Assembly: GCA_017417055.1 (NCBI GenBank)
Contig: JAFPZX010000055.1
Span: 1-56,236, forward strand
DNA length: 56,236 nt
Reading direction: 5' to 3'
Source of the DNA: Anaerolineaceae bacterium
GTDB taxonomy: Bacteria > Chloroflexota > Anaerolineae > Anaerolineales > Anaerolineaceae
The translations under genes were made by a program, and so were the position numbers. The notes under the pieces were generated by a model. That model saw only the letters and a list, made by a program, of their open reading frames with translations. It was not told where the DNA came from and did not search any database. Position 1 is the first letter of the stretch, and each line of letters opens with the position of its first letter. Shown here in pieces: positions 131-53,375 of this stretch.

Positions 131-220
131 TTAGTTAGGAGTTAGGAGTGAGGAGTTGTTTGGGTTCAGTCCCTGATCTTCGGGAACCTCATCACTCCTT
201 ACTACTTACTTCTTACTCCT
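131..220. repeat. Class A period-7 array, two inverted arms
   Basis: Left arm 131-158 is four heptads (TTAGTTA, GGAGTTA and relatives). Right arm 193-220 is four heptads of roughly complementary sequence (CACTCCT, TACTACT and relatives). The 34-bp centre holds a small GGTTC/GAACC hairpin. The arms could form an imperfect long hairpin. It sits directly upstream of the ribosome binding site of the partial minus-strand gene. Confidence 0.75.
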
Positions 221-315
221 TATACCCAGAGTTTACAGCGGGAATTTCAAAATGTAAACGGGCAATGTTGTCCCTTGACTTTTGTTTAAAAATGTGGTAG
301 GGATATAGAACAAAG

Positions 316-346
316 AACGGGACAGCTCCGGAATAACCGTCCCGTT
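316..346. repeat. GGGAC-type hairpin, class D-like
   Basis: An 8-bp perfect stem, AACGGGAC at 316-323 and GTCCCGTT at 339-346. No T-run follows on either strand, so it is not a classical terminator. The rest of the 221-460 gap shows no gene. The only other signal seen is a TTGACT at 275-280 with a poor -10. Confidence 0.5.
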
Positions 347-463
347 TGGGGTACATCTCATTCTAAAGATACGAATCTCTATGAGTTAAGCGTGCAAGAA
401 AAGTGCCGATTAGATATTATTTTTGTAATATTTTAGTCAATAAATAAGTCACTATAAGATTTT

Positions 464-492
464 TTGCGGATTTTAACCGTTTATTGTATAAT
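464..492 (+). promoter_or_regulatory. Sigma-A-type promoter of the secreted Pro/His-rich protein
   Basis: TTGCGG at 464-469 and a perfect TATAAT at 487-492, separated by 17 bp. The predicted transcript starts near 499, just ahead of the ribosome binding site of the gene at 512. Confidence 0.65.
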
Positions 493-511
493 ACAGGCAA
501 AGGAGTGGAAC

Positions 512-964
512 ATGAAACGATATATTTTTGCAATTCTGTGTATCTGCCTGCTGGCGGCTGCCTCTGTTGCTTCGGCACAGGAGCCTGCCTTCTATAAGGT
601 AACTTATGAAGGAAACAATTGTCTGGCATCTGTCCCAACGGACACCAACACTTATAGCGCGGGGACACCCGTTACGGTGCTTTTTGACCCTGTGACCTAT
701 ATGAACGGTTTAATTTTCTACGGTTGGGATTGGAACAATGACGGTGTTGCTGATTTCGGCTATGCTTATAACACCTTCAATATGCCTGCAAAGGACGTAA
801 CAATGAAGGCCATCTGCATCCTGCCGTATTCTCCGGAACCGGCACCGCACCCGCATCCGGGTCCATGGCATCCGGGCCCGTGGGGTCCTTACCATCCGGA
901 ACCGTGGGGCCCTCACCATCCGGAACCGTGGGGTCCGCGTCCTCATAATTTTCCTCACAGATAA
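512..964 (+). CDS. Secreted small protein: InlB-B-repeat-like domain and Pro/His/Trp-rich tail
   Basis: The 150-aa protein starts at the ATG at 512, after AAGGAGTGG at 499-507. Residues 1-23 form a signal peptide (Lys-Arg, hydrophobic core, ASA-Q cleavage site). Residues about 27-105 resemble one InlB B-repeat ('Listeria/Bacteroides' repeat): VTYEGN near the start, VTVLFDP, a GWDWNNDG turn and FNMPAKDVTMKA at the end. Residues about 110-150 are a low-complexity tail of repeated (H)HPEPWGP units, rich in Pro, His, Trp and Gly. Such tails can bind metal ions or cell-wall polymers, but that is inference. It is monocistronic, with its own promoter and a bidirectional terminator. The combination of one B-repeat with a histidine tail is not a family I can name. 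Confidence 0.85.
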   Translation: MKRYIFAILCICLLAAASVASAQEPAFYKVTYEGNNCLASVPTDTNTYSAGTPVTVLFDPVTYMNGLIFYGWDWNNDGVADFGYAYNTFNMPAKDVTMKAICILPYSPEPAPHPHPGPWHPGPWGPYHPEPWGPHHPEPWGPRPHNFPHR

Positions 965-991
965 GAAGAAAATTGATGATGTTATAGGATA

Positions 992-1032
992 AAACAAAGA
1001 CGGTATGAATAAACAACATACCGTCTTTGTTT
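992..1032. terminator. Bidirectional terminator between convergent genes
   Basis: A 16-bp perfect stem (992-1007 with 1017-1032) with a 9-nt loop. T-rich tracts on both sides let it serve the plus-strand gene ending at 964 and the minus-strand gene ending at 1088. Confidence 0.85.
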
Positions 1033-1087
1033 TTCATCCGGAAAGGAATGATACTTCATGTCATTTTTTATGATCCGGATTGAATCG

Positions 1088-1831
1088 TTACTCCGAAAGT
1101 TTGAGAATCCACAGCGGCAGTTCGCTGAGAACAATAACCAGTAAAATCATGATCAGCGCGTAGGCGTAGATATCCTGATATTCATTGAAATAAATGCTGG
1201 TATTGATGGCTTTTCCGAGGGAGTTCCGTGTCTGAACCAGATATTCGGTGGAGATCACAAGCTTGACGCCCATCCCAACCGCGTTGATATAGGCCTGTTT
1301 GAGGTACCCTGCCATCAATGGCAGATGGACATTCCACAGAACCTGAAGATTAAACCCGCTGTTCAGCCGGTAAACATCCATCAGGTCTTTGTCAAGACTG
1401 CGGAATCCCTCGCAGACGGCTTCGCTGATCATGGGAATCAGGATCAGCGAGGTCCCGATAAGAGGTACACGATCATATGTCGTGAGAACCATGATGATCA
1501 CCACCAGCATCAGCATGGGGATGGAGCGCAGCATCATCATTAATGGCCGCAGCAGGATCCGTATAAAATCACTGGCGCCTTCCGCCATTCCAATCATCAA
1601 TCCAAGCACGGTAGAAACAGCCATCGCGCTCAGCAGATGGAGCAGGGTTGTCCGGATCAGCAGCCAGGTTTTGGGTGTAGAAAGCAAACGAAAAAAAGCT
1701 CTCAGAATCTCAGCGGCATCCGGAAAAACCAGTTTGTCGTTTTTTATCCAACCGGCTGCCTGGATCAGGCAGCCGATCAGAATAATTCCAAGAGTGAAAG
1801 CTAAAACTTCTAAAGCTTTACTTCGCCTCAT
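1088..1831 (-). CDS. ABC transporter permease, SsuC/TauC (NMT1-type) family
   Basis: This polytopic protein of about 247 aa has six or so hydrophobic segments and the permease loop near residues 165-190 (EGFRSLDKD ... SGFN ... LPLMAGYL), the EAA-like ATPase contact. Family knowledge places it as the membrane subunit of an aliphatic sulfonate, taurine or pyrimidine-type importer. It follows the binding protein on the same strand and overlaps it by 14 bp. I chose the ATG at 1831, next to the upstream gene's TAA. An in-frame ATG at 1843 is possible. Neither start has a good ribosome binding site, so translational coupling is likely. No ATPase gene lies in this operon, so the complex must borrow one or be incomplete. 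The substrate is unknown. Confidence 0.82.
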   Translation of the reverse strand: MRRSKALEVLAFTLGIILIGCLIQAAGWIKNDKLVFPDAAEILRAFFRLLSTPKTWLLIRTTLLHLLSAMAVSTVLGLMIGMAEGASDFIRILLRPLMMMLRSIPMLMLVVIIMVLTTYDRVPLIGTSLILIPMISEAVCEGFRSLDKDLMDVYRLNSGFNLQVLWNVHLPLMAGYLKQAYINAVGMGVKLVISTEYLVQTRNSLGKAINTSIYFNEYQDIYAYALIMILLVIVLSELPLWILKLSE

Positions 1832-2738
1832 AATAAAAATCATCTGTCGGTACGGAACCGCCGAACTGGCTCAGGTCGATCTCCGCAGTCGCTTCGATTT
1901 GATCTTTCGCGTCAAGCGCCTTCACGAAGGAAATTGCGCAGTTCGGGATGGCAGTCTGCGCCACCTTGACATTCGGCAGGATCTCGAGCGCAACAGCAGC
2001 TTCCGCAAGGGCATTCGGGTCTGTCTGTGCCAGGTTGGCTGCTTCTTCAGCCTTGTCAAGATATTCGGCGGCAGCTTCCGGATGGTTCGCGATGGTGTCC
2101 GCGTTTACAAACAGCCCGGCCTGGGTGAAGCCTTCAAAACCGTTTGCGGCTTTCAGCAGATCGTTGACCGCATAGGCGGTGATAGCTTCATTCTTCATCT
2201 TTGCTGCAGTCAGGGCGGGTTCCGCAGTGACGACGATGGCATTTTCATCCGTGAGCAGCAGAGTCTGGGTGTTGGCTGCGCCGGCGAGATAGTCAACCTG
2301 TGCCGGTTCCAGACCGCTGCCGGCAAGCGCGAAGAGCACAACCGATGCATTGATGGTGTTTTCGCCGAAAAGCGTGATGGCGGCACCATTGATGTCTTCA
2401 AGCGCAAAATCTGCCTTTTGTGAGGCGATGTAAAGGTTGCCCCATGTAACCACGGCAGCCAGCTTGTAGTCTGATTTACCGGCTTTGTAAAGCTTGGCGC
2501 CCGCATTGATCGGCGCGATGATGAAATCAGCGGTTTTGTTGGCAAATTCCGCCGGGATGGTGTCAGCCGCAACGAAGGTGTAATTTTCCGGGGCTTCAGC
2601 TGCCAGAGCGGCAACCGCCAGGGCCGGTGCGCCATTCGGCGCGGAGACTTTGATGGTATATGTGTCATCAGCTGAGACCGGTGCCAAAAACACCGATATC
2701 AGGAAAACGGACAGAATTATGATAATTATTTTTTTCAT
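1818..2738 (-). CDS. ABC transporter substrate-binding protein (SsuA/NMT1-like)
   Basis: The 306-aa protein has a clear signal peptide (residues 1-23, MKK, Ile-rich core, VSA-D). A periplasmic-binding-fold body follows, starting KVSAPNGAPALAVAALA and containing ADFIIAPINAGAKLYKAG, typical of NMT1/SsuA-like proteins that bind small organic ligands. No lipobox cysteine is present, so anchoring is unclear. An AAGGAG site at 2747-2752 supports the start at 2738. It heads a two-gene operon with the permease that overlaps its 3' end. The protein is unusually rich in Ala and poor in Cys and Trp. The ligand cannot be told from sequence. Confidence 0.82.
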   Translation of the reverse strand: MKKIIIIILSVFLISVFLAPVSADDTYTIKVSAPNGAPALAVAALAAEAPENYTFVAADTIPAEFANKTADFIIAPINAGAKLYKAGKSDYKLAAVVTWGNLYIASQKADFALEDINGAAITLFGENTINASVVLFALAGSGLEPAQVDYLAGAANTQTLLLTDENAIVVTAEPALTAAKMKNEAITAYAVNDLLKAANGFEGFTQAGLFVNADTIANHPEAAAEYLDKAEEAANLAQTDPNALAEAAVALEILPNVKVAQTAIPNCAISFVKALDAKDQIEATAEIDLSQFGGSVPTDDFYYEAK

Positions 2739-2920
2739 TGAGATTCTCCTTTATCTCAAAGCCTTTATAGGCTGTGAGCCGGCGGCAGTTTGTATTGTTT
2801 CTATAAACCTGTCACCTTAGGTTCATTATACTCTGATGTGCTGAATTATTATGTTTTTGAGGTACTAAGTCGACATTTTATTTATTTATCGTGTCAGAAC
2901 GTAATTGTATACTGCAATAA

Positions 2921-2950
2921 TTGAGCGGTTTCATAGTATGATTGTATATA
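2921..2950 (+). promoter_or_regulatory. Candidate promoter of the GH13 glucosidase
   Basis: TTGAGC at 2921-2926, an 18-bp spacer and TATATA at 2945-2950. It is the best match in the 290-bp divergent gap, but the -35 is weak. Confidence 0.45.
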
Positions 2951-3026
2951 TTGTTTGTTGAAATTAACGGAGCAGGGACCGCAGTTTTCTCTGTACATTA
3001 TTCAAAAATATATTGGTGGAGGTTGT

Positions 3027-4571
3027 ATGGCAGCTGCATGGCTGAAGGACGCTGTTTTTTATGAAATTTATCCGCAGTCATTCTGTGACTCGAATGGTGA
3101 CGGAATCGGGGATATCAACGGGATCATTTCAAAGCTGGACTATATCAAGGACCTGGGCTGCAATGCTTTGTGGATCAACCCATGTTTTGATTCGCCTTTC
3201 AAAGACGCGGGGTATGACGTTCGGGATTATAAAAAAGTCGCGCCGCGTTACGGGACGAACGAAGATCTGTATCGGCTGTTTGATGAGGCCCACGCAAAGG
3301 GGATTCATGTGCTGCTGGATCTGGTTCCCGGTCACACTTCTGAAGAACATGCCTGGTTCCGTGAGAGTCAAAAAGAAGAGCGCAACGAATACAGTGACCG
3401 CTATATCTGGACGGATTTCTGGCTGCATGGAGCGTCCGGGATGCCTTACATCGGCGGCGAATCGGAGCGGAATGCCTGCTACGTTCTGAATTTCTTCAAA
3501 TGTCAGCCGGCTTTGAATTATGGTTTTCTGCATCCGACCGAATCCTGGCAGTTTTCAATGAACCATCCGGAACCGCTCAAAACCCGGGAGGCTATGAAGG
3601 ACGTGATGCGATTCTGGCTTTCTCATGGCTGCGACGGTTTTCGTGTAGATATGGCGAATTCCCTGGTGAAGGGAGATGACGAAAATAAAACGGGAACCAG
3701 CCTGATCTGGCGGGATGTCCGCAGAATGTTGGACCTCGAATTCCCGAATGCCGCCATGGTTGCGGAATGGAGCGCTCCGAAGCTTGCCCTCCGTGCCGGT
3801 TTTGATATGGATTTTTATCTGAATTACGGCGGAGTGAACGGATACTGCACGCTGATGCGTGACTATTATTATGACGAAAAACACAATGCCAGTTATTTCA
3901 AAAAGGATTCCGGCGGCAATATCAACCGTTTTCTCGGACAGTACCTGGACTGGTATGAAGATACAAAAGACCTGGGCTACATTTCCCTGCTCACCTGCAA
4001 TCACGACACCACCCGCCCGCGCTTTGGACTTGAGCCTGATGAACTGAAACTGGCTTATGCTTTCATTTTCACCATGCCGGGTGTTCCGTTCCTGTATTAC
4101 GGTGATGAGATCGGCATGCGCTTTTTGGATATTCCGACCAAAGAGGGCGGTTATACACGAACCGGTTCCCGCACGCCGATGCAGTGGAACACGGGGAAGA
4201 ACCTTGGATTTTCTGAAGCGGACGAAAAGGATATCTATCTCCCGGTTGACGGCTCGGATGACGCACCGACTGTCACGGATCAGATGAAAGATCCCGATTC
4301 CCTGTTGAACACGGTCAAAGCTGTTCTGAAGCTGCGCCATCAGGAAGAGGATCTGCAGGCAGATGCTGCGTTCCGTGTCGTGTGTTCGGAACCGGGAAAA
4401 CCATTTGTTTACAAACGCGGTGCCTTGTTGTTGGCTGTGAACCCCAACAGCAATGAGGTGAGCCTTGATTTGCCTGATGAAAGTGGAACGAATCTTTTTC
4501 GTATCGGCAGCGGAGATCTCAAAGATGGAAAATTGACGGTCGGTCCGCAGTCTTTCCTGATTTTCCGCTAA
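3027..4571 (+). CDS. GH13 alpha-glucosidase / oligo-1,6-glucosidase-like
   Basis: The 514-aa cytoplasmic enzyme (no signal peptide) hydrolyses or transfers alpha-glucosyl units. The GH13 (beta/alpha)8 barrel begins at once with DAVFYEIYPQSF (residues 8-19). Catalytic residues are visible: nucleophile Asp208 in GFRVDMA, acid/base Glu247 in VAEW, and the transition-state Asp327 in NHD. The length and the barrel-first layout match the oligo-1,6-glucosidase/trehalose-synthase group. The start is the ATG at 3027 after GGTGGAGG (3015-3022); a TTG at 2955 lacks a ribosome binding site. It is a single gene, divergent from the ABC operon. Substrate (maltose, isomaltose, trehalose, sucrose) cannot be decided. 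It probably acts with the other GH13 enzyme and GlgB found at 31.7-36 kb. Confidence 0.9.
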   Translation: MAAAWLKDAVFYEIYPQSFCDSNGDGIGDINGIISKLDYIKDLGCNALWINPCFDSPFKDAGYDVRDYKKVAPRYGTNEDLYRLFDEAHAKGIHVLLDLVPGHTSEEHAWFRESQKEERNEYSDRYIWTDFWLHGASGMPYIGGESERNACYVLNFFKCQPALNYGFLHPTESWQFSMNHPEPLKTREAMKDVMRFWLSHGCDGFRVDMANSLVKGDDENKTGTSLIWRDVRRMLDLEFPNAAMVAEWSAPKLALRAGFDMDFYLNYGGVNGYCTLMRDYYYDEKHNASYFKKDSGGNINRFLGQYLDWYEDTKDLGYISLLTCNHDTTRPRFGLEPDELKLAYAFIFTMPGVPFLYYGDEIGMRFLDIPTKEGGYTRTGSRTPMQWNTGKNLGFSEADEKDIYLPVDGSDDAPTVTDQMKDPDSLLNTVKAVLKLRHQEEDLQADAAFRVVCSEPGKPFVYKRGALLLAVNPNSNEVSLDLPDESGTNLFRIGSGDLKDGKLTVGPQSFLIFR

Positions 4572-4587
4572 AGCTGCTTATTGCTTG

Positions 4588-4710
4588 GGTGAGGAGACAG
4601 TTTTGCGCGAAGCGCAGAGCTGCCCCCTCGCCTTCACTGTTCACGGATCACATGAGGTCTGCCCTGATGTTGCCGCGCACCCGGCACAGCAGGACTAAAC
4701 GCTGTGATGA
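4588..4710. repeat. Class D fragment followed by a class C element
   Basis: 4588-4645 carries a GGAGACAGTTTTGCGCG motif with a partly complementary GAGCTGCCCCC stretch, as in class D copies. 4646-4710 matches class C: GAGGTCTGCCCTGATG, a Gly-Cys-rich centre, then GCACAGCAGGACT. The rest of the 4571-4980 gap holds the terminator below and an AT-rich leader with no clear promoter. Confidence 0.6.
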
Positions 4711-8199: not shown

Positions 8200-8260
8200 G
8201 CGCATGGGGACTGGCATCTTGTGCCGCGAAGCCGACACAAACGTACCTGTCCCCATGTGC
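8200..8260. repeat. Class B palindromic element, copy 1
   Basis: An imperfect palindrome: GCGCATGGGGACTGGCAT on the left, CCTGTCCCCATGTGC on the right, with a GTGCCGCGAAGCCGACAC centre. It closely resembles the copies at 27112, 39529, 49925 and 55918. It lies between convergent genes and may act as a terminator, though the T-run is weak. Confidence 0.8.
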
Positions 8261-11611: not shown

Positions 11612-11656
11612 AAAAACTGCAGCCGGATCAAACATGAAACTGCAGTTTTTGTTTTT
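11612..11656 (+). terminator. Terminator of the CBS-domain gene
   Basis: AAAACTGCAG (11613-11622) and CTGCAGTTTT (11640-11649) form the stem, followed by TGTTTTT. The loop is 17 nt. Confidence 0.8.
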
Positions 11657-11756
11657 AACTGTTAGCTGTTAGTTATTAGTTATTGGCACCGAATTGACAG
11701 CCACCAGCAGCTATCTGCCAGCCACCAACTACCAACTGCTAACTACTGACTTCTAT
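11655..11756. repeat. Class A period-7 array overlapping the dinG stop codon
   Basis: The left block 11655-11682 is four units (TTAACTG, TTAGCTG, TTAGTTA twice). The right block 11701-11756 is eight in-phase units such as CCACCAA, CTACCAA, CTGCTAA and CTACTGA, roughly complementary to the left block. The dinG stop (complement 11743-11745) and its last four codons lie inside the right block. Confidence 0.85.
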
Positions 11757-14916: not shown

Positions 14917-16746
14917 ATGAAAGAACCTTATATTCATCGTCGGGAAAAACTGAGCGACGTCACACGGGACCTGGCCGCGGTAGCAATGGGGTACAAAGCG
15001 GCAGACCTCTTGATTAAAAACGGAAAACTTGTCAACGTCAATGTGGGATATATCCAGGAAAACATTGACGTTGCTGTATCTCATGGGTTCATCGCCTATG
15101 TCGGACCCAACGCAAAGATCCTGACGGATGAGCACACCAGAGTGGTTGATGCTTCCGGGCGGTATATCGTTCCGGGCTTTATTGACGGTCATATGCACAT
15201 CGAAAGCTCCATGATCGATCCGCGGAACTTTGCCTGCGGTGTTCTGCCGAATGGCGTGACGACCATCTGTCCGGACAACCATGAAATCACCAATGTTTTC
15301 GGTATGAAAGCAGTCAAGCTTTTCCATGACGTGATGGAAGGGGTTCCGATCAAATGCTTCCTTGCCATGCCGGTGTGTGTTCCTGCGCTGCCTGGACTGG
15401 AGGATGCGGGTGCAGTCATCGGTCCGGACGATGTAGCTGCGGCTTATGACCGCGGCTGGGCACAGCTGCAGGGCGAACAGATGAACTTTGTGGGGATGAT
15501 CCATGGCGATCCGAAGGTTCATGAAATCAATAAGGCAACACTGGACGCCGGTGTGGTGGCGACTGGACATTATCCTTCCCATGAATTGGAACAGGGCCTG
15601 AATGCTTTTATCGCAACCGGTCAGAACGCCTGCCATGAGCTGACGGATAAAGCCGGAGCTATGCGGCGTGCGGAATTGGGAATGTATGCCCAGATGCGCT
15701 ATGGGACGGCCGGTTACGACATGCCCAACGCTATCACGGCCTATACTGACAATCCGGGAATTGATGACCGCTTTTTCTGCATGGTCACGGATGACGTGGA
15801 TCCTGCCACAGTTTACAATGACGGACAGCTGCTGCGTGTCGTCCGGACTGCGATTCAACAGGGTGTCCCGCCGGTGAAGGCGATTCAGTATGTCACTATC
15901 AATCCGGCACAGATGCTGGAAAAAGCCCGCTGGATCGGCTCTATTTCGCCCGCTAAGGCTGCGGATATCCTGATCGTCAGCGACCTGCCGGGAATGGTGA
16001 TCGACGAGGTCTACAGTGACGGCGTACTGGTTGCGGAAAACGGACGTATGGTTGTGAATGTGCCTCCTTATGAATATCCGGACTGGGCGCTGCATTCCGT
16101 CTTTTTGGATAAACTGACACCGGATTTCTTCAAAATCTCAGCGGAAGGAAAAGAAAAGCTGAAGGTCCGCGTGATGGACTGCATTCCGAATGTGCTAAAG
16201 GTCCCGGAAGTTTTTCTGGATATGTATGCAGTAGATGGTGAGCTGAAGGCTGATCCGGAGAGGAACCTGGCCAAGATTTTTGATATTTACCGCCATACGC
16301 AGGATTATGGAGTGACTGGAAGCCATGGCGTCGGTTTCATCCGTGGGATTGGGATGCGTGAGAATTGCGCATATGCATCAACTGTGGCGCATGATTGCCA
16401 TAACCTGATGGTGGTGGGGACCAGTGATGAGGCTATGTGCATTGCGGCGAATGCCCTGATTGATTGTAAAGGGGGCATCGCGATCGTTGTGGACGGTAAA
16501 CTGGCGTATGTGATGGAACTGCCGCTGGCAGGTCTGATGACGCTGGAATCCGCGGAGGTTGCCGCGGCTCGGGTTTTGCGGGTTGAAGAGGCGATTGCCG
16601 CCACCGGCTGCCCGCATTCCAAGATGGAAATGACGCTGAGCTTTGCCGCGCTGCCGGTTCTGGAGGAGCTGCATATCACCAACCACGGTTATGTGCTGCT
16701 GAAGGAAGGCAAGGCACCTGAGCTGGTACCGCTGATTGTGGAGTAA
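14917..16746 (+). CDS. ade: Adenine deaminase
   Basis: The 609-aa enzyme converts adenine to hypoxanthine and ammonia in purine salvage. It belongs to the amidohydrolase superfamily, Ade branch, distinct from adenosine deaminase. The metal-binding motif is PGFIDGHMHIESSM near residues 87-100. Also present are NGVTTICPDNHE, a GMIHGDPK segment, and ATGHYPSH with further metal ligands; the late MVTDDVDP supplies the catalytic Asp. The C-terminal third (from about 400) carries the Ade-specific domain with TGSHGVGFIRGIG. The start at 14917 follows TGGAGG. It is monocistronic. A period-7 array begins at the base after its stop, ahead of a bidirectional terminator. Confidence 0.95.
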   Translation: MKEPYIHRREKLSDVTRDLAAVAMGYKAADLLIKNGKLVNVNVGYIQENIDVAVSHGFIAYVGPNAKILTDEHTRVVDASGRYIVPGFIDGHMHIESSMIDPRNFACGVLPNGVTTICPDNHEITNVFGMKAVKLFHDVMEGVPIKCFLAMPVCVPALPGLEDAGAVIGPDDVAAAYDRGWAQLQGEQMNFVGMIHGDPKVHEINKATLDAGVVATGHYPSHELEQGLNAFIATGQNACHELTDKAGAMRRAELGMYAQMRYGTAGYDMPNAITAYTDNPGIDDRFFCMVTDDVDPATVYNDGQLLRVVRTAIQQGVPPVKAIQYVTINPAQMLEKARWIGSISPAKAADILIVSDLPGMVIDEVYSDGVLVAENGRMVVNVPPYEYPDWALHSVFLDKLTPDFFKISAEGKEKLKVRVMDCIPNVLKVPEVFLDMYAVDGELKADPERNLAKIFDIYRHTQDYGVTGSHGVGFIRGIGMRENCAYASTVAHDCHNLMVVGTSDEAMCIAANALIDCKGGIAIVVDGKLAYVMELPLAGLMTLESAEVAAARVLRVEEAIAATGCPHSKMEMTLSFAALPVLEELHITNHGYVLLKEGKAPELVPLIVE

Positions 16747-16781
16747 GGTTTCAGGTATCAGGTATCAGGTTTTAGGGATTA
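16747..16781. repeat. Class A period-7 array abutting the ade stop codon
   Basis: Five in-phase heptads: GGTTTCA, GGTATCA twice, GGTTTTA and GGGATTA. The first begins at the base after the TAA at 16744-16746. In sequence they match the complement of the array at 21661. Confidence 0.85.
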
Positions 16782-18062: not shown

Positions 18063-18072
18063 TACATGCAAT

Positions 18073-18304
18073 GCGTTGATGGAAACGAGTAACGCGCAGT
18101 GCGGTCACAGCGAATCCGGGAGGGTGGAAGCCGGAGGACAGGCAGCGCGTGAAAATCCTTCCGGAGCACAATGCTGAACACGAAAGTAATTAAGCGGCGC
18201 GGGGTGATTTCCGATATCAGAATCATAAAGTGCCTGCCGCATCCGGCAGGAATTAGGGTGGTACCGCGGAATTCCCGTCCCTTCTGTTTTGGGACGGTTT
18301 TTTT
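18073..18304 (+). promoter_or_regulatory. T-box leader (tRNA-Ile sensing) of ileS
   Basis: Stem I spans 18073-18174, closed by GCGTTG (18073-18078) pairing with CAATGC (18169-18174). The AGTA loop-E half follows GGAAACG. An ACGCGC/GCGCGT helix holds the specifier loop. The specifier codon reads ATC (Ile) at 18155-18157, after GAAA. The distal part has the usual AG-bulge and GGTGG terminal loop (about 18108-18135). The T-box AGGGTGGTACCGCGG is at 18255-18269; its TGGT bulge matches an uncharged ACCA end. The 5' arm of the terminator is part of the competing antiterminator. Uncharged tRNA-Ile should turn the gene on. Confidence 0.95.
18275..18304 (+). terminator. T-box attenuator terminator
   Basis: CCGTCCC (18275-18281) pairs with GGGACGG (18291-18297), followed by seven T. 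It is the OFF state of the ileS T-box. Confidence 0.93.
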
Positions 18305-18307: not shown

Positions 18308-18412
18308 TTAGTTGTTAGTTTGTAGTTGGTAGTTGGCAGCAGTTCAAGATCCTGTTTCATCATGCTGTCAAGTATGAAACTGCCAACCAACAACTACCAA
18401 CTGCCAACTCAA
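18308..18412. repeat. Class A period-7 array inside the ileS leader mRNA
   Basis: The left arm 18308-18342 is five heptads of the TTAGTTG/GTAGTTG type. The right arm 18378-18412 is five heptads of the complementary AACTGCC/AACTACC type. The 35-nt centre is unique. The array lies between the T-box T-run and the ribosome binding site, so it must be transcribed whenever ileS is on, and could fold into a long imperfect hairpin. Confidence 0.85.
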
Positions 18413-21660: not shown

Positions 21661-21716
21661 ACCTAAAACCTGAAACCTAAAACCTAAAACCTAAAACCTA
21701 AAACCTAAAACCTGAT
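21661..21716. repeat. Class A period-7 array, ACCTAAA x 8
   Basis: Eight heptads in perfect phase: six exact ACCTAAA, one ACCTGAA and a final ACCTGAT. It ends two bases from the stop codon (complement 21719-21721) of the minus-strand GGDEF gene. On that strand it reads TTTAGGT repeated. It is the most homogeneous array in the window. Confidence 0.93.
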
Positions 21717-21718: not shown

Positions 21719-22777
21719 TTATTCCAGTTCCAGCTGCCTGCCGCGCATATATTCACCCAGCATCCTGGCGAAAAAGAGCATGACCGCGTATTCGTTTTCC
21801 TGCCAGATCCGCAGCGTATGCGGTTCCGCGCACATCAGGTACCCGTAATTCTGGCCCCCGGAGCTGATCCGCATGACCAGCAGTGCCTCCACTTCATTTT
21901 TGCTGAGGATCTTGTAGAACTTCGGACATTGGCTTCTGATTTCGGAAATTTTGTTGGTGGCATATACATCTTCTGATATCAGGCAGTCGATACAATCGAA
22001 GGAGCCGAGTGAATGAAGCCCGATAACGCTTTTCAGCTCATAATTTCCGCCGGAATAATACAAATTGTTGATATGCAGGTCGTTTTTTATCGATTCAAAC
22101 CCGGCTTTGAGTTTTTCGTACAGATCTTCCGAGGTGTCGAAGGCAGCGGCAAGATTCTTGAAAATTTCGTAGAGACTGTTGTTTCTGAGTTTTTTGATCT
22201 CGATGTCTTTATGCTTTTCCGGGACATATATGATGTAGCAATTTCGGCCCTTTGTCTTCCCTCGGTACAGGGTTTTGTCGATCATGGTGAACAGTTCGTT
22301 GTAATCCCGGGTGTCATGAGGAAAACTGGCAAGCCCCGCTGTGCCGCTCATTAACAGATGGTATTCATCCGCAATATAGATTTTCATCAGGACCGTATTG
22401 TTGCGGAAAAGATCGTTGCAGAATCTTTTTTTGTCGTCATATTCCAGGTCCCGAAAATTGATGAACAAAAACTCATCTCCGCCAAACCTTCCGCCGATCC
22501 CGAAATCCCCGAGAATTTTCTGCAGTTCTTCGGCAACGCCCTGCAGCACCTTGTCCCCGATTGAATGACCGTAGGAATCGTTGATATATTTGAAATTGTC
22601 CAGGTCGATCATTCCGAAGGTGAAGGGAATATCATTTTCCATCAGGGATTTCACAAAGGCGATCATGTGGGCTCTGGAAACAAGACCGGTCAATGGATCC
22701 AGTACATCAGTGACGCGGCGTCCGTCCAGAGCCTGCTTGAAGTAATCGTATTTGAGTAATTGTTCTCTTTTGTACAT
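21719..22777 (-). CDS. GGDEF diguanylate cyclase with C-terminal GAF-like domain
   Basis: The 352-aa cytoplasmic protein has a GGDEF domain at residues about 20-180: DPLTGLVSRAHM at the start, FGMIDLDNFKYIND for the metal site, and the intact signature RFGGDEF near 97-103. No RxxD inhibitory site is obvious just upstream. The C-terminal half (about 195-345) looks like a GAF domain, with YLMCAEPHTLRIW near the end, and probably senses a ligand. The GGDEF-before-GAF order is the reverse of the usual. It lies 27 bp after the sugar-kinase gene on the same strand, so the two are likely co-transcribed. The start at 22777 has only a weak ribosome binding site. Confidence 0.88.
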   Translation of the reverse strand: MYKREQLLKYDYFKQALDGRRVTDVLDPLTGLVSRAHMIAFVKSLMENDIPFTFGMIDLDNFKYINDSYGHSIGDKVLQGVAEELQKILGDFGIGGRFGGDEFLFINFRDLEYDDKKRFCNDLFRNNTVLMKIYIADEYHLLMSGTAGLASFPHDTRDYNELFTMIDKTLYRGKTKGRNCYIIYVPEKHKDIEIKKLRNNSLYEIFKNLAAAFDTSEDLYEKLKAGFESIKNDLHINNLYYSGGNYELKSVIGLHSLGSFDCIDCLISEDVYATNKISEIRSQCPKFYKILSKNEVEALLVMRISSGGQNYGYLMCAEPHTLRIWQENEYAVMLFFARMLGEYMRGRQLELE

Positions 22778-27237: not shown

Positions 27238-27335
27238 TAAGGAAACGCGGATTAATTTCGGTGAATGCGGGAGGACAGTTCCCCTCGTTCCTCGAGAGAA
27301 CCGTCCCGAACCTCAATTAATCAGTGATTCCCTAA
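27238..27335. repeat. Class D element between mgtA and rpiB
   Basis: Outer arms TAAGGAAACGCGGATTAAT and ATTAATCAGTGATTCCCTA, inner arms GGGAGGACAGTTCCCC and GAGAACCGTCCCGAAC. It is a near-copy of 39613-39711 in the opposite orientation. Confidence 0.82.
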
Positions 27336-38160: not shown

Positions 38161-38195
38161 AGAAATCAGAAATAAGAAATAAGAAATAAGAAGAC
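38161..38195. repeat. Class A period-7 array abutting the degV stop codon
   Basis: Five in-phase units: AGAAATC, AGAAATA three times and AGAAGAC. The last units form the 5' arm of the terminator below. Confidence 0.88.
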
Positions 38196-38227: not shown

Positions 38228-38409
38228 CAGCAGCCAGTGGTCAGTAGCCAGTGGTCAGTAGTCAGCGGGCAGTTGTCAGTGGACAGTGGACAGTAGTTAG
38301 TGGACAGTGGCCAGTGGTCAGAAGTCAGTGGTCAGCAGCCACCAGTCACCAGTCTCTAACTACCAACTACCAACTACTAACTACTAACTACTAACTACTA
38401 ACTACTTTC
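38228..38409. repeat. Longest class A period-7 array (26 units in phase)
   Basis: It runs without a phase break from 38228. About sixteen units are of the CAGTGGT type (CAGTAGC, CAGTGGA, CAGTTGT, TAGTGGA and so on), then two CACCAGT, then TACCAAC and TACTAAC units, and finally TACTTTC. The second block is roughly complementary to the first. The last unit covers the stop codon (complement 38402-38404) of the acyltransferase gene. Confidence 0.95.
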
Positions 38410-39496: not shown

Positions 39497-39528
39497 TATT
39501 AATTATTCCTTTATTAGCTGTTCATACC

Positions 39529-39595
39529 GGAGCACATGGGGACTGGCACCTTATGCGGCGCAGCTTGCGGAAGCGTGCTTGTCCCCATGTACGGC
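39529..39595. repeat. Class B palindromic element, copy 3
   Basis: GGAGCACATGGGGACTGGCA at the left, GCTTGTCCCCATGTACGGCGC at the right, with a TTATGCGGCGCAGCTTGCGGAAG centre. It stands in the divergent acyltransferase/aroQ gap. Confidence 0.82.
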
Positions 39596-39612
39596 GCTCA
39601 GGCAATGAATTG

Positions 39613-39711
39613 TTAGGAAAACACTGATTAATTGAGGAGCTGGGACGGTTCTCCCGAGGAATGAGGGGAACTGTCCTCCCGCCTTCACCGGAATTAATCA
39701 GCAGTTCCTTA
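39613..39711. repeat. Class D element, full-length copy
   Basis: Outer arms TTAGGAAAACACTGATTAATT and AATTAATCAGCAGTTCCTTA are inverted; inner arms GGGACGGTTCTCCC and GGGGAACTGTCCTCCC likewise. Reverse-oriented relative to 27238-27335. Confidence 0.85.
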
Positions 39712-49600: not shown

Positions 49601-49719
49601 CTGCGCCGGGCGCTGATGCCGGTCCAGACGGTAGTCAGCACCAGGACAAACGCAACCAATATGCCGCCAATAACTGCAATGTTAATGTTTTTTCTGTCTT
49701 GTATGTTCTGTCTGTTCAT
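46648..49719 (-). CDS. Hybrid sensor histidine kinase (dCache-PAS-HisKA-HATPase-REC-REC)
   Basis: The 1023-aa membrane protein has a first membrane segment at about 15-37, an extracytoplasmic dCache-like sensor (about 40-300) and a second membrane segment near 310-330. Then comes a PAS domain (about 375-495, FHALGRLTRRPDGSPITYIGIFVDIT). The phosphorylated His525 is in SHEIRTPMN. The ATP-binding domain has NILGNAVKF, DNGIGM and GSTGLGMAI. Two receivers follow with Asp816 (VDLKMP) and Asp953 (MDVRMP). Such hybrids pass phosphate through the receivers, often to an Hpt protein; none is nearby. Start: ATG at 49719 with GGGTGA in front; a GTG three codons earlier lacks a ribosome binding site. Downstream of it lies the bactofilin-like gene on the same strand, 92 bp away. 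Confidence 0.92.
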   Translation of the reverse strand: MNRQNIQDRKNINIAVIGGILVAFVLVLTTVWTGISARRSAEKAVNTVSNFYLRELAGRREQVVVSNLNNNIQNMREALDLLDEDDLTDMEHLQAFQARMKKLYNVEKFAFVDTNGLIYTSLGTLDNISDYSFDHNTISEPEVSIKDIHSKDKKVVIALPIDRIPFIGQTLVTCFMEIDMDVLLEGLSLQSDANAATFCNLYDRSGISLTNVVLGGLSSDDNLLNALKNANFNEGHTFEQVNADFTSGREGLITFNYNNIDESMYYIPVRGTDWMLTYLIRDSIISDQINTITQGIILRSVIQSAATALVMLGVFAVINLQNRKNSLLILEKETADAASRVKQQELEARLKLQDQLLAQERQNESLKIMHDMLNSGPWFMDFDEKGQMTSVTWSDTFRRMLGYTDTNDFPDVLESWSDLLHEEDKERVIKEFNDTITDYTGKTTYDVTYRLKTKNQGWRWFHALGRLTRRPDGSPITYIGIFVDITQQREMEQTLIKQQEALKNALAQAEEANAAKTSFLSSMSHEIRTPMNAIIGLDTIALKDPDLSEQTRDRLQKIGSSAKHLLSLINNILDMSRIESGRMTLKNEEFSLREILEQINTMINSQCQDKGLTYDCRITGKVNDYYIGDDMKLKQVIINILGNAVKFTPKGGNVTFIVQPMAVFEDKATMRFIMKDNGIGMDTDYLPKVFEPFSQEDENNTNKYGSTGLGMAITKNIVEVMNGNISVESEKGVGTTFTVTVTLKTSDKQAHEGSEVRPQDLRVLIIDDDPVSCEHSRLVLEEVGIVSDSCLSGTEALEMMALAHARMEPYNLILVDLKMPEQDGVAVTRKIREKFNDESTIIILTAYSWDDVMEEAINAGVDSFIAKPLFASSVLDEFALAIQRRLAAHKEIHKADLTGRRVLLAEDIEINAEIMTDILSLRDVEADHAENGQIAVDLFTKSEEGTYSAILMDVRMPVMNGLEAAAAIRALNRSDAKSIPIIALTANAFDEDVQRSLQAGMNAHLTKPVDSEHLFETLEQLIK

Positions 49720-49924
49720 AGTGTTCACCCATTTTGTTTACAGGGCATCCATTCGGTTTTTCTTCACTTTTTCGCCTGACACTGATTTTCGAAACCCAAT
49801 GAGCATCATTTATTCCGGAAGGAACTGAACAGGATCGGCATTGACAATTTGTGGAGAACTGCTGAAACAGTTCTTGAAATGCCGGCCTTTCAGATCTCGT
49901 TTTTGTAATATATCTATTCAGGAC

Positions 49925-50038
49925 GGAGCACATGGGGACTGGCACCTTGTGCCTCGATGCCGACACTGGCCTGCTTTGTAAAGAATCGGCTTCGCCTTGT
50001 TAATCCGGAGCGGGAGCTTCGCCTGTCCCTGTGTGTGT
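49925..50038. repeat. Class B element with an internal insertion, copy 4
   Basis: GGAGCACATGGGGACTGGCA at the left and GCCTGTCCCTGTGTGTG at the right match the class, but about 45 extra bases (with a GGCTTCGCC/GGAGCGGGAGCTTCG segment) separate the halves. The 49720-50247 gap holds no gene that I can support. Confidence 0.65.
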
Positions 50039-50247
50039 AGCTCAAGTTCTGAACAGTTGCTTAATAATTATAATTCTTATATCGGATCTGAAGTTCTTTT
50101 TCTTTTGTTTTTTCACTTTGGAGACAATGATTACTTGAGTTTCTGGGACGGTCTTGGCAAAGCGCAGAACAGTACCAGAAACTTACTGCGTCGTTCGACT
50201 CAATCTCCACCGTCTTCGGTTTATTCTTTTCGAGCTTCATGGTTGGT

Positions 50248-50279
50248 AAAAAAAAACACCTGATCTGTATCAATCAGGT
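50248..50279 (-). terminator. Terminator of tRNA-Gly
   Basis: ACCTGAT and ATCAGGT (50258-50264 with 50273-50279) pair around an 8-nt loop, followed on the minus strand by a G and nine T, eight bases after the tRNA 3' end. Confidence 0.92.
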
Positions 50280-50286
50280 ATTTTTG

Positions 50287-50357
50287 AGCGGCTAACGAGA
50301 TTCGAACTCGTATGATCACCTTGGAAGGGTGACGTACTGCCATTGTACGATAACCGC
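50287..50357 (-). tRNA. tRNA-Gly (anticodon TCC)
   Basis: The 71-nt tRNA folds fully: 7-bp acceptor stem (GCGGTTA with TAGCCGC), GTAC/GTAC D stem, anticodon stem TCACC/GGTGA with loop CTTCCAA, and a 5-bp T stem around TTCGAAT. The anticodon TCC reads GGA and GGG codons. The discriminator base is T, as in bacterial glycine tRNAs. CCA is not encoded. It is the only tRNA in the window, with its own promoter and terminator. Confidence 0.97.
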
Positions 50358-50371
50358 TTGTTTATGTGATT

Positions 50372-50399
50372 ATTTTAGCATAAGTTTGATTATTTGCAA
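50372..50399 (-). promoter_or_regulatory. Promoter of tRNA-Gly
   Basis: TTGCAA (complement 50394-50399), 16-bp spacer, TAAAAT (complement 50372-50377) with a TGC extension. The leader before the tRNA would be about 7 nt. Confidence 0.75.
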
Positions 50400-50558
50400 G
50401 GGCTTTTCAAAAATTCATGATTTTTTCGTTTGCAATTATCCTTTGTTTGCAATTGAGTAACTTTTTACGGAGTATTCCCGGGACAGGACCGAAGGCCTGT
50501 CCCCCTTAGGCTCATATTGGGACAATTATATAGTAATATTGACTGAGGCTTGAATATC

Positions 50559-50655
50559 TAAGGAAACGCTGATTGATTCCGTTGAAGGCGGGAGGACAGT
50601 TCTGCTCTTCGCGCAAAACTGTCCCCGAACCTTAATGAATCCGTGCTTTCTTCGT
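50559..50655. repeat. Class D element downstream of copA
   Basis: TAAGGAAACGCTGATTGATT at the left; GGGAGGACAGTTCTGC and GCAAAACTGTCCCCGAACC as inner arms. It ends 20 bp before the copA stop. A further GGGACAGG/CCTGTCCCCC hairpin lies at about 50480-50507. Confidence 0.8.
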
Positions 50656-50675
50656 TTTTCCTATGGAACCTGGTT

Positions 50676-53252
50676 TTATTCGATCCCGATAAATTCGTAA
50701 TCTTCGTCCTCCACTGCTTTCCGGACAGCAGCTTCATCAAGCGGAGCGGAAAGCGTGATGACGGCAGTTCCCGCCTGGTGACTGGCTGTGGCGGTTTTGA
50801 CAAACGGAAGTGCTTCGAGGGCTGTCTTGATGGCGTGTTCGCAGTGTTCGCACATCATGCCTTCAATCCTGACTGTCGCAGTATTCTCTGCCGGAGCAGA
50901 ACCTTTGACAGGGATATCAACCGGGCATGCGGCCAGCGGTTCCGGTTTGGCTGCCTGAACATTGATAACCTTTTTGTTTCGCATCGGTTTGTCATGGCTC
51001 GCGTCGTGCAGCTTGAACAGGTTCAGCCGCAGGGCGTTCATGCAGACGGTGAAGCTGGAAAGGCTCATGGCGGCAGCACCGATCATCGGGTTCATCTTCC
51101 AGGAGAAAAGTCCGGCTGCCACCGGAATACAAATGGCATTATAAAAGAACGCCCAGAACAGATTTTCATAGATGTTCTTCAAAACCGCGCGGCTCAGGCG
51201 AATAGCAGCGGAGACATCGGTCAGTTTGCTGTTCATCAGGACGATATCAGCGCTGTCGATAGCTACATCCGTTCCTGCGCCGATAGCGATGCCAATGTCC
51301 GCACGGGTGAGCGCCGGGGCATCATTGATACCGTCTCCGACCATAGCGACCTTTCCCTGTTGTCGCAGCTTGCGGATCACCGTTTCTTTCCCGTTTGGCA
51401 GAACGCCCGCTATGACATCATCCACGCCGGTCTGAGCGGCAATAGCCCGGGCTGTTTTCTCATTGTCTCCGGTCAGCATCACGGTGGTCAGCCCCAGCGC
51501 TTTCATCTCCTTGACGGCCTGCGGGGAATCCTCTTTGATTACGTCTGCTACCGCGATGATGCCGAGCAGCTTCCCGTCTTCTTCAAAGAAAAGCGGGGTC
51601 TTTCCCTGTTCCGCCAATTCTTCCGCTGTGGCGCTTATCTGAGGATCGAGCTTGATCAATGATTCGATAAAGGATCTGCTGCCGGCATGCAGAATGTGAT
51701 TGCCGAGTTTGCCTTCCAGCCCATTGCCGGGCAGGGCATGAAAATCATTCACGCTCTCATTTGTCCGTAAGCCTTTTGATTCAGATTCTGTCACGATGGC
51801 ACGTGCAAGCGGATGTTCGCTTTTCTGTTCGAGCGCGTATGCTTTTGCCAGAAGGGAATTGTCAAAAGCGATGACGTCAGTGACTTTCGGTTCGCCTTTG
51901 GTGATGGTGCCGGTTTTGTCCATAACGATGATGTCCATTCGACCGACGGATTCGAGGGATTCGCTGGTTTTATATAAGATCCCGTTTTTTGCTCCAAGCC
52001 CGTTGCCGACCATGATAGCAACCGGTGTGGCCAGACCGAGTGCGCAGGGGCAGGAGATCACCAGGACGGAAATGCCGCGGGCAAGGGCAAAGCTGAGACT
52101 CTGTCCGGCGATCAGCCAGCCAATAACGACGATGACCGCAATGCCGATGACGGCGGGGACAAAGACAGCAGAGACTTTGTCCGCGATGCGGGCGATCGGC
52201 GCTTTGGTCGCGGCTGCGTCGGAGACCATCTGGATGATCTGCGCCAGAGTGGTATCTTCCCCAACCCGTGTTGCCTGACAACGGATATAGCCCGACTGGT
52301 TCGTAGTGGCAGCAGAGACGTGATCGCCTGTTGTCTTGTCGACCGGGATGGATTCACCTGTCAGCGCAGATTCGTTGACCGCGGTGGATCCTTCCAATAT
52401 GATGCCATCTACCGGGATATTTTCTCCCGGTTTGACTGCGAAGATGTCGCCGGTCTGCACCTCTTCGATCCCGACTTCGGTTTCTTTCCCATCACGCAGC
52501 AGGACCGCGGTTTTCGGCGCCAGTTTCATCAGACTTTTGAGCGCATCGGTTGTTCGGCCTTTTGACATGGCTTCCAGCATTTTCCCGACTGTGATGAGTG
52601 CCGGTATCATGGCGGCGGTCTCGAAATAAAGCTGGTTGTGATACAGGTCCATCAGCTCCATGTTGTCTGCCCCCCGGGTGATCATGCCGCACATCTGGTA
52701 AAAAACAAAGGTGGACCAGGCAAAAGCGACGGAGGAGCCGAGGGCGACCAATGTATCCATATTAGGCGCTCCGTGGAAAAGAGAACTGAACCCGCTGGTG
52801 AAAAATTTGCGGTTGACCATCATGACGATGGCAGCCAGGATCATTTGGGTCAGCGCCAACCCTAAATGGTTATGATGGAAATAAGCGGGAAGCGGCCAAC
52901 CCCACATGTTGAAACCCATGGTGATATACATTAAAACAAGCAGAAATCCGGCGGAGAGGATCAGCCTTCGTTTGAGTTTCGGTGTTTCGTGGTCTTTGAG
53001 CGCTTCTTCTTCCTCGGCGATGCGGTTTGTTTGTGAAGCAGATCTTTGTGCGGTGCCTTTCAGCGATGCGCCATAACCTGCCGCTTCTACTGCGTGAATG
53101 ATATCCGCCGATGGTGCAGATCCTTCCACACCCATGGAATTGGTCAGAAGACTCACGGAAACCGAGGATACCCCGGGTACTTTTGATACTGCTTTTTCCA
53201 CGCGGGCCTGGCAGGCCGCGCAGCTCATTCCTGTTACAAGATATTGCTCCAT
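50676..53252 (-). CDS. copA: Copper-exporting P-type ATPase with HMA domains at both ends
   Basis: The 858-aa P1B ATPase moves Cu+ out of the cytoplasm. An N-terminal HMA domain has GMSCAAC (Cys11, Cys14). The membrane copper site is CPC at 401-403, the phosphorylated Asp445 is in DKTGT, the SEHPLA histidine follows, and GDGINDAPAL is present. The TGES actuator motif is intact. After the last membrane pair a linker of about 50 residues leads to a second HMA domain (Cys801 and Cys804 in GMMCEHC), which resembles a free CopZ chaperone. Bacterial CopA usually has its HMAs at the N-terminus only, so the C-terminal one is notable. AAAGGA before the ATG. It is the second gene of the csoR-copA operon; the gap between them is a period-7 array. 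Confidence 0.95.
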   Translation of the reverse strand: MEQYLVTGMSCAACQARVEKAVSKVPGVSSVSVSLLTNSMGVEGSAPSADIIHAVEAAGYGASLKGTAQRSASQTNRIAEEEEALKDHETPKLKRRLILSAGFLLVLMYITMGFNMWGWPLPAYFHHNHLGLALTQMILAAIVMMVNRKFFTSGFSSLFHGAPNMDTLVALGSSVAFAWSTFVFYQMCGMITRGADNMELMDLYHNQLYFETAAMIPALITVGKMLEAMSKGRTTDALKSLMKLAPKTAVLLRDGKETEVGIEEVQTGDIFAVKPGENIPVDGIILEGSTAVNESALTGESIPVDKTTGDHVSAATTNQSGYIRCQATRVGEDTTLAQIIQMVSDAAATKAPIARIADKVSAVFVPAVIGIAVIVVIGWLIAGQSLSFALARGISVLVISCPCALGLATPVAIMVGNGLGAKNGILYKTSESLESVGRMDIIVMDKTGTITKGEPKVTDVIAFDNSLLAKAYALEQKSEHPLARAIVTESESKGLRTNESVNDFHALPGNGLEGKLGNHILHAGSRSFIESLIKLDPQISATAEELAEQGKTPLFFEEDGKLLGIIAVADVIKEDSPQAVKEMKALGLTTVMLTGDNEKTARAIAAQTGVDDVIAGVLPNGKETVIRKLRQQGKVAMVGDGINDAPALTRADIGIAIGAGTDVAIDSADIVLMNSKLTDVSAAIRLSRAVLKNIYENLFWAFFYNAICIPVAAGLFSWKMNPMIGAAAMSLSSFTVCMNALRLNLFKLHDASHDKPMRNKKVINVQAAKPEPLAACPVDIPVKGSAPAENTATVRIEGMMCEHCEHAIKTALEALPFVKTATASHQAGTAVITLSAPLDEAAVRKAVEDEDYEFIGIE

Positions 53253-53261
53253 TTTTTCCTT

Positions 53262-53375
53262 TCAGTGGTCAGTGTTCAGTGGTCAGTGTTCAGTGGTTAG
53301 TGTTCAGTGGTTGGTGGCTCTGATCTATCAGAAACTACTCACTCCTCATTCCTCACTCCTAACTCCTCACTTCAT
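53262..53375. repeat. Class A period-7 array filling the csoR-copA gap
   Basis: The left block 53262-53317 is eight units alternating TCAGTGG and TCAGTGT, ending TTGGTGG. The right block 53334-53375 is six units (ACTACTC, ACTCCTC, ATTCCTC, ACTCCTA and others), partly complementary. The right block covers the csoR stop codon (complement 53367-53369) and the last codons. Because the genes are one operon, the array is in the mRNA. Confidence 0.92.

What the first reader, a model, noticed from the sequence alone, without database searches (positions are those of the whole stretch)
131..53375. A family of period-7 intergenic arrays that start at stop codons
Eight loci (131, 11655, 16747, 18308, 21661, 38161, 38228, 53262) carry tandem heptads. 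Unit sequence differs between loci (ACCTAAA, AGAAATA, CAGTGGT, TACTAAC, TCAGTGG, TTAGTTG), but the period is always exactly 7 and never 6, 8 or 9. Most have a (T)AG or its complement in each unit, and many switch to the complementary unit half-way, giving a long imperfect hairpin. The arrays at 16747, 38161 and 21661 begin within zero to two bases of a stop codon; those at 11743, 38402 and 53367 run through the stop into the last codons. Heptanucleotide STRR repeats are established in filamentous cyanobacteria; I know of none described in this type of organism. A strict period with drifting sequence suggests a copying process that measures length.
Basis: partly seen in the sequence, partly recalled or inferred. 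Interest (0 to 1): 0.8.

Follow-up and report, generated by a model that had tools for sequence, protein, structure and literature searches.

The report
Seven-base repeat arrays at gene edges
Short seven-letter DNA repeats fill many gaps between genes in this Chloroflexota bacterium and nearly always point the same way relative to the nearest gene; they are a rich new example of a repeat type already reported in several other bacteria, and what they do is untested.

Summary
The window has 13 period-7 runs and none at period 6, 8 or 9; dinucleotide shuffles give 0.025 on average. The host is a Flexilinea-like Chloroflexota. In a 714 kb sample of its genome, period-7 runs are 94 intergenic against 7 coding; periods 6 and 8 are near zero. 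The arrays share a core, TNAGDDD on the G-rich strand (4.93 bits per unit against 1.9-2.1 in simulated arrays). The G-rich strand runs away from the nearest gene in 105 of 121 arrays, at starts as well as stops; 31 intergenic regions have arms meeting head-on and none tail-to-tail. Stop codons are enriched, partly because the array supplies the stop: TAG in 25 of 56 against 132 of 892 elsewhere. Five of 14 same-genus genomes match the pattern and nine do not. Unit similarity decays with distance inside an array, which fits unit-by-unit slippage. The same kind is in print for Xanthomonas and Nostoc (same polarity), Beggiatoaceae, Geobacter and Chloroflexus. This is a large new member of a known kind; period 7 is not strict in other genera of the order.

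The parts
133..156 (+). TNAGDDD array (TTAGGAG, TGAGGAG); left arm, probably at the start edge of a minus-strand gene at the window's left end (gene inferred, not called)
188..222 (-). facing arm (TAAGGAG/TAAGAAG on the minus strand)
11655..11684 (+). left arm (TTAGTTA/TTAGCTG), directly after a hairpin and T run that look like a terminator (by eye)
11718..11754 (-). right arm, runs through the stop of the minus-strand helicase gene (end 11743)
16746..16776 (+). single array (TCAGGTA); the stop TAA of the adenine deaminase-like gene is its first TNAG unit
18308..18339 (+). left arm between T-box leader end and ileS start; arm identical in G012 while the loop differs
18384..18409 (-). right arm before the ileS start
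21661..21713 (-). single array ACCTAAA (TTAGGTT on the minus strand), about 5 bp from the stop of the GGDEF gene at 21719
38161..38192 (+). TAAGAAA/TCAGAAA array after the degV stop (38158); about 4 units here, 9 TAAGAAA units in the orthologous place of G043
38235..38335 (+). CAGTGGT (TCAGTGG) array, second left arm
38331..38406 (-). GTCACCA then CTAACTA array, right arm, runs into the stop of the acyltransferase gene (end 38402)
53262..53317 (+). TCAGTGG/TCAGTGT array at the start edge of the heavy-metal P-type ATPase gene
53334..53371 (-). ACTCCTC (TGAGGAG) array at the stop of the metal-sensitive repressor (csoR-like) gene (end 53367); a different unit family from the facing arm

Best explanation
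These are intergenic heptanucleotide simple-sequence-repeat arrays. Shown: they are period 7, mostly non-coding, share a TNAGDDD core, and sit against gene edges with the G-rich strand running away from the gene; units drift locally, and copy number differs at the one orthologous array compared with the same unit. Inferred: they grow in place by unit-by-unit duplication (replication slippage with a preferred 7-nt step) from short seeds at gene edges, the stop codon plus G being one such seed, and then mutate. Coding sequence stops their spread, so they fill the gap up to the stop codon or to just outside the ribosome-binding site. Inferred and weakest: the polarity and the kept G of the core reflect selection on the RNA or DNA (for example against C-rich, G-free RNA directly after stops and against G-rich, ribosome-site-like RNA before starts). 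The arrays are present in one clade of the genus, by gain there or loss elsewhere.
For: Period spectrum of sampled DNA and whole-genome pattern counts. Unit identity in G000 falls with distance inside an array: 0.786, 0.724, 0.695, 0.654, 0.612, 0.580 at 1 to 6 units, against 0.533 between arrays, as expected of local duplication; G005 falls from 0.833 to 0.679. Unit order is not shared between arrays: at score 21 or more, 120 real, 109 order-reversed and 87 unit-shuffled pairs of 2602, which speaks against copying of whole arrays. The same unit with changed copy number at the orthologous degV place. A native TTCCTCACTTCAT at the csoR end in G041, where G000 has a CTCACTC array. The stop is in unit register in 33 of 62 cases: TAA/TGA at offset 0 in 14 of 33, TAG at offset 1 in 19 of 29. 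Coding sequence is avoided. Polarity 105 of 121.
Against: Slippage alone predicts no shared core, yet the core carries 4.93 bits per unit against 1.91-2.10 in five simulations, and the core G changes least between neighbouring units in G000 and G006 (0.929, 0.978) and nearly so in G005 (0.932, against 0.940 for the core A); the phase fit favours a conserved column. Slippage alone does not explain polarity. In G006 the similarity of units does not fall with distance (0.828, then 0.82 at six units; 17 arrays). At ileS both arms are identical in G000 and G012 while the loop is not, which looks like function or concerted change. The nine same-genus species without a match need a change of process or of selection that I did not find.
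Confidence: 0.6

Rival explanations
1. Regulatory binding arrays: an OB-fold RNA/DNA-binding protein (cold-shock protein, ribosomal protein S1, or Rho) binds one core per 7 nt on the pyrimidine-rich CTNAHHH strand, which is the sense strand before starts. Core and polarity are then kept by binding.
For: Shared core, constrained G, polarity at both gene edges, conserved ileS arms. MacGregor 2015 (PMC4679880, abstract and passages) proposes S1, Csp or CsrA binding for TAACTGA heptads (rotation CTGATAA = CTNA+TAA) upstream of starts and notes that CspB can bind heptamer direct repeats, one protein per heptamer. Rho is my own addition (recalled).
Against: No binding data. Of 19 orthologous gaps seen at five loci in four relatives, 7 carry any heptad array, so most sites are dispensable. 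Unit families vary within one genome. Nine sister species do without. Xanthomonas and Nostoc show the same placement with a different unit.
Confidence: 0.25
2. Mobile or REP-like elements dispersed by a Y1 (IS200/RAYT-type) transposase.
For: Y1_Tnp (PF01797) is found in 5 of 5 array-bearing same-genus genomes (7, 3, 4, 2, 5 matches) and in 2 of 9 array-less ones at lower scores, E 1.9e-8 and 6e-4.
Against: 0 of 17 Y1 gene neighbourhoods of the array-bearing species (about 54 kb; three further stretches fetched from other genera were not scored) hold a heptad chain of three units, where the G000 background of 0.19 per kb would give about ten; a hairpin repeat of another family occurs in 5 of the 17. 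Unit order is not shared between arrays. Two exact matches of 28 nt or more between 67 array regions. The array-bearing species are one clade, so the co-occurrence is confounded. Y1 is also present in other genera with few or no TNAG hits.
Confidence: 0.05
3. Telomere-like 3'-end extension: at a break inside a gap each 3' end is extended with TNAG heptads and the ends are then joined, giving facing arms of unrelated units.
For: 31 facing pairs, no tail-to-tail pair, one forward-reverse-forward region; arms often of different families; loops of 12 to 401 nt. The TNAG core recalls telomere units (recalled, no call).
Against: Single arms without a detectable partner still sit at the gene behind them in 36 of 40 cases, which random breaks do not predict. 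No candidate enzyme was sought beyond Y1 and SbcD. Units resemble their neighbour rather than one fixed template.
Confidence: 0.05
4. Selection for a hairpin (terminator or mRNA 3' end protection) with arms kept complementary.
For: RNA folds of five window loci: z -5.35, -3.04, -2.93, -1.67, +0.85. Within-locus arm complementarity 0.693 against 0.638 between loci, p 0.018, 31 pairs. 23 of 55 single-arm loci have a degenerate facing arm that beats 95% of shuffles.
Against: 18 of 31 pairs score under 0.70; one window locus folds no better than shuffles; many arrays are single (34 F only, 35 R only).
Confidence: 0.1

Closest known systems
GGGNATC heptads of Xanthomonas and GGGGA(C/T)T heptads of Nostoc (Rehm et al. 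2015, PMC4692102; abstract, passages and section 13 seen)
   Same: Heptanucleotide, intergenic, degenerate units, nearer to the 5' neighbouring ORF irrespective of ORF orientation, overlap of stop codons, convergent pairs (70 and 75 cases in two Xanthomonas; few in Nostoc), few between divergent ORFs, length and sequence variable between relatives.
   Different: Unit TNAGDDD has no GGG tract, so no quadruplex by that rule; several unit families in one genome; a Chloroflexota clade.
TAACTGA direct repeats of Beggiatoaceae, Thiocystis, Cyanobacteria and Bacteroidetes (MacGregor 2015, PMC4679880; abstract and passages seen)
   Same: Heptamer; TAACTGA rotates to CTGATAA, i.e. the CTNA core; mostly just upstream of starts; some sets overlap stops of upstream genes; indels mostly in 7-nt increments between two Cyanothece strains.
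   Different: One fixed unit there; no TAACTGA x2 in 714 kb of G000. Another Chloroflexota genome, G107, has TCAGTTA arrays, the same unit on the other strand.
[quoted passage not shown]
   Same: Tandem heptamers; MTYCTGA is the complement of TCAGRAK, a TNAGNNN unit; the four classes are described as mostly found in pairs.
   Different: 16 sequences in class 3; annotated as predicted regulator sites.
Short tandemly repeated repetitive (STRR) heptads of filamentous cyanobacteria (recalled; three Calothrix heptanucleotides are cited inside PMC4692102)
   Same: Heptad arrays in non-coding DNA.
   Different: Other unit sequences (recalled); not tested here.
(GATAGRA)n satellites of Chloroflexus aurantiacus (PMC6749651, passages seen)
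   Same: Heptamer-derived tandem arrays scattered in a Chloroflexota genome.
   Different: 22 satellites of a single other unit.

Membership tests
Intergenic heptanucleotide SSR arrays (Xanthomonas/Nostoc type) | period 7 over-represented against other unit lengths | tested here: met
   (lags 3-15)
Intergenic heptanucleotide SSR arrays (Xanthomonas/Nostoc type) | under-represented in coding DNA and between divergent genes | tested here: met
   94 intergenic against 7 coding runs; divergent gaps 7 of 90 array gaps against 104 of 612 of all gaps of 40 bp or more
Intergenic heptanucleotide SSR arrays (Xanthomonas/Nostoc type) | lie nearer the 5' neighbouring ORF of the repeat strand whatever the ORF strand | tested here: met
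   105 of 121
Intergenic heptanucleotide SSR arrays (Xanthomonas/Nostoc type) | G-tract of three or more for quadruplex | tested here: not met
   unit TNAGDDD; so not a member of the G4 subtype; quadruplex formation itself not tested
TAACTGA repeats | unit TAACTGA in tandem | tested here: not met
   0 in 713,588 bp of G000 and in the samples of 13 other genomes
REP/RAYT elements | copies beside a Y1 transposase gene | tested here: not met
   0 of 17 neighbourhoods
Phase-variation SSRs | array length switches expression of a surface gene | not testable with these tools
   needs strains and expression data
CRISPR arrays | repeats separated by unique spacers | tested here: not met
   head-to-tail heptads without spacers

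The most novel reading that the evidence does not exclude
A sequence-specific factor builds or keeps TNAG heptads at the outer edges of genes, with the G-rich strand pointing into the gap. It was gained in one clade of the genus, and the same polarity rule holds for unrelated units in other phyla. If so, bacteria have a general, undescribed process that extends gene-flanking DNA in 7-nt steps.
Probability: 0.12. Interest if true: 0.85.

Novelty: new member of a known kind. Interest (0 to 1): 0.45.

Why it matters
Heptad arrays have been reported piecemeal in Xanthomonas, cyanobacteria, Beggiatoaceae, Geobacter and Chloroflexus, with different explanations. Here one genus has species with up to hundreds of pattern matches and sister species with none, so cause and effect can be sought by comparison. 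The polarity rule, seen in this clade, in a small set of other Anaerolineales units and in published Xanthomonas and Nostoc data, is a specific fact that any theory of 7-nt repeats must explain.

Tried and rejected
Y1/RAYT transposase as cause: it co-occurs with arrays in the genus, but its genes stand beside other hairpin repeats and not beside heptads; rejected. Loss of SbcD hairpin nuclease: matches occur in 14 of 14 same-genus genomes, in G002 a weak fragment only; no correlation. Dispersal of whole arrays: a first test gave an excess of up to five-fold over unit-shuffled arrays, but it included 14-nt flanks; without flanks real pairs score about as reversed ones and modestly above shuffled ones, so I take as an artefact. 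Avoidance of a CTNAG site as reason for the missing C before the core: CTNAG is 14-16% of XTNAG elsewhere in G000 and 18 of 519 in arrays, so it is not avoided genome-wide to that degree. Chance: excluded. A first gene caller was faulty (coding fraction 0.21) and was replaced. A second simulation mode (seeds from real 7-mers) crashed on an N and was not repeated. Ortholog comparisons cover five gaps by eye, not a systematic set. Gene edges come from my own simple codon-based ORF caller, so start positions are approximate. Polarity counts use arrays with a motif score over 3 (144 of 150), both neighbours called (130) and flanks summing to at most 1500 bp (121). The phylum survey used a drawn sample of 121 genomes. 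Paper searches listed no report on heptads in Anaerolineaceae or Flexilinea; this covers only that library and those terms, and long lists were cut (one search lists 10 of 25). Of the papers named I saw abstracts, passages and one section, none in full.
Full report
What was checked. The window comes from an unnamed assembly, G000, of 4,408,105 bases in 200 contigs. Its isoleucyl-tRNA synthetase is 90-96% identical to those of four named Chloroflexota genomes, one of them a Flexilinea from goat jejunum (one match covers 627 residues only). At the threshold used, the window has 13 lag-7 runs and none at lags 6, 8 or 9; forty dinucleotide shuffles gave a mean of 0.025.

Genome scale. In a sample of 713,588 bases of G000, lag-7 runs number 94 in intergenic and 7 in coding DNA; lag 6 has 1 and 2, lag 8 has 1 and 0, lag 9 has 0 and 6. 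In the whole genome the pattern TNAG four times at spacing 7 occurs 228 + 282 times (overlapping counts), at spacing 8 not at all, at spacing 6 three times. The pattern read backwards at spacing 7 occurs 67 + 48 times, so other heptad units exist too.

The core. An unsupervised fit of a 7-column motif, phase and strand free, gives CTNA on one strand (TNAG on the other) with three further positions poor in G (in C on the TNAG strand): 4.93 bits per unit. Arrays simulated by copying random heptamers with the same neighbour identity give 1.91-2.10 bits in five trials. Between neighbouring units the core G is the least changed position in G000 and G006 and second to the core A in G005; at unit position 7 only 2 of 137 changes in G000 involve C. 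The phase fit favours a conserved column, so this is weaker than it looks; the simulated arrays, fitted the same way, reached at most 0.89 against 0.935 for the core column in the real arrays.

Polarity. Among 121 arrays with two called neighbours in five species, the nearer gene edge lies behind the G-rich strand in 105 (p 3e-17), at start edges (37 of 44) as well as stop edges (68 of 77). The median distance is 8 bp. Of 101 regions, 31 read forward-then-reverse, none reverse-then-forward, one forward-reverse-forward, 34 are forward only and 35 reverse only. Forty single arms without detectable partner follow the rule in 36. In seven other Anaerolineales genomes with units of 7, 8 or 9 nt, oriented by G content alone, 26 of 34 follow it and 4 regions are forward-reverse against none reversed; that set is small, and G014 (0 of 2) and G031 (1 of 3) go against it, as does G021 of the array clade by that measure (2 of 4).

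Stop codons. Arrays lie within 10 bp of a stop edge 56 times and of a start edge 14 times, although the two kinds of edge are about equally common (580 and 594; p 2e-7). The distance to the edge behind has a median of 25 bp at starts and 2 bp at stops, as if the arrays run up to the functional edge. Genes ending within 10 bp of an array use TAG in 25 of 56 cases against 132 of 892 others (p 3e-7), and the stop sits in unit register in 33 of 62 cases. TNAG units contain TAA, TGA or TAG unless N is C, so the array often is the stop. At one locus, the adenine deaminase-like gene, the protein ends at the same place in four relatives that lack the array, so there the array begins at the native stop.

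How arrays change. In G000 identity between units falls from 0.786 for neighbours to 0.580 six units away, against 0.533 between arrays; G005 shows the same trend and G006 does not. Order of units is hardly shared between arrays beyond what reversed order gives. The genomes reached through named loci, G041, G042, G043 and G044, are identical to G012, G006, G021 and G005 over 300 bp at the ileS start and are taken as the same species. The degV array has about 4 units in G000 and 9 in G043; G042 has another unit farther on; G041 and G044 have none. The ileS upstream array keeps both arms letter for letter in G012 with a different loop, has changed units in G021 and G006, and is absent in G005. 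Downstream of ileS, G006 has a degenerate trace and G021 and G005 none. The deaminase array is absent in all four relatives seen. The gap between the metal ATPase and csoR-like genes has a small heptad array of another unit in G044, none in G041, G042 and G043, and in G041 a native sequence from which the right arm could have grown. In all, 7 of 19 orthologous gaps seen carry an array. Arms of one locus are only slightly more complementary than arms of different loci (0.693 and 0.638, p 0.018, 31 pairs).

Distribution. Five of 14 same-genus genomes match the pattern (G000, G005, G006, G012, G021; 93 to 803 overlapping hits; 4.0-4.8 Mb) and nine do not (2.0-3.5 Mb, one of them a single contig). 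In sampled DNA of two of the nine (60 kb) no lag-7 run was found. At ileS the other four array-bearing genomes are 82-86% identical to G000 in DNA, eight of the nine others 68-73%, and the ninth, G001, matched only outside ileS at 66-68%, so one gain or one loss suffices. Other Anaerolineales carry 7-, 8- and 9-mers with other units. In a phylum sample 52 of 121 genomes match the TNAG heptad pattern at least once, many only once or twice and often with other heptads besides.

What it most likely is. Heptanucleotide repeats that grow in place by slippage with a preferred 7-nt step, held out of genes by selection, with core and polarity kept by selection or by an unknown bias. The slippage step is inferred. 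The 7-nt preference of a polymerase is a published hypothesis that I saw only as reported in PMC4692102 and PMC4679880. A binding role for an OB-fold protein is the main rival and can coexist with it.

What is known. Rehm et al. 2015 (PMC4692102; abstract, passages, section 13) report the same placement and polarity for other heptads in Xanthomonas and Nostoc. MacGregor 2015 (PMC4679880; abstract and passages) reports TAACTGA heptads before starts. The Geobacter metallireducens paper (PMC2700814; passages) lists tandem MTYCTGA as predicted regulator sites. Heptamer-derived satellites are reported in Chloroflexus (PMC6749651; passages). So the kind is known. Not reported in what I saw: this host clade, the TNAG core with several unit families in one genome, the facing arms of unlike units, and the all-or-none distribution in one genus.

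Noticed in passing
window 39515-39600, 49911-49975 and 8200-8258: A dispersed hairpin-like repeat containing ACATGGGGACTGGCACC, also crowded around a Y1-transposase gene in L200 and with related motifs at L203: looks like a REP family with its RAYT.
   Followed up: partly
window 39613-39700, 27250-27335, 50570-50650: A second dispersed repeat of about 88 nt, up to 95% identical between copies in G000, with partial copies beside a Y1 gene in L194.
   Followed up: partly
samples of G000, G005, G006: The tetramer CTAG is extremely rare: 0.014-0.032 per kb against 3.7-3.9 expected from base composition and 0.41-0.49 from a Markov estimate.
   Followed up: partly
window 18067-18285 and L135 (G021): The ileS T-box leader appears cut in G021: its first bases are followed almost directly by the heptad array (by eye).
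   Followed up: no
G107 contig C1 (Anaerolineales): Long TCAGTTA arrays, i.e. TAACTGA repeats on the other strand, a unit reported in the abstract of PMC4679880 for Beggiatoaceae, Thiocystis, Cyanobacteria and Bacteroidetes.
   Followed up: no
G028 (L096, L097): A relative in another genus has dense 8-mer arrays (TTAAGCTG, facing AACAGCTT) together with 7-mer arrays, a natural comparison for what sets the period.
   Followed up: partly
G104 (another family of the phylum): Very high counts of the reversed control pattern (670 and 633), so another heptad unit is abundant there.
   Followed up: no
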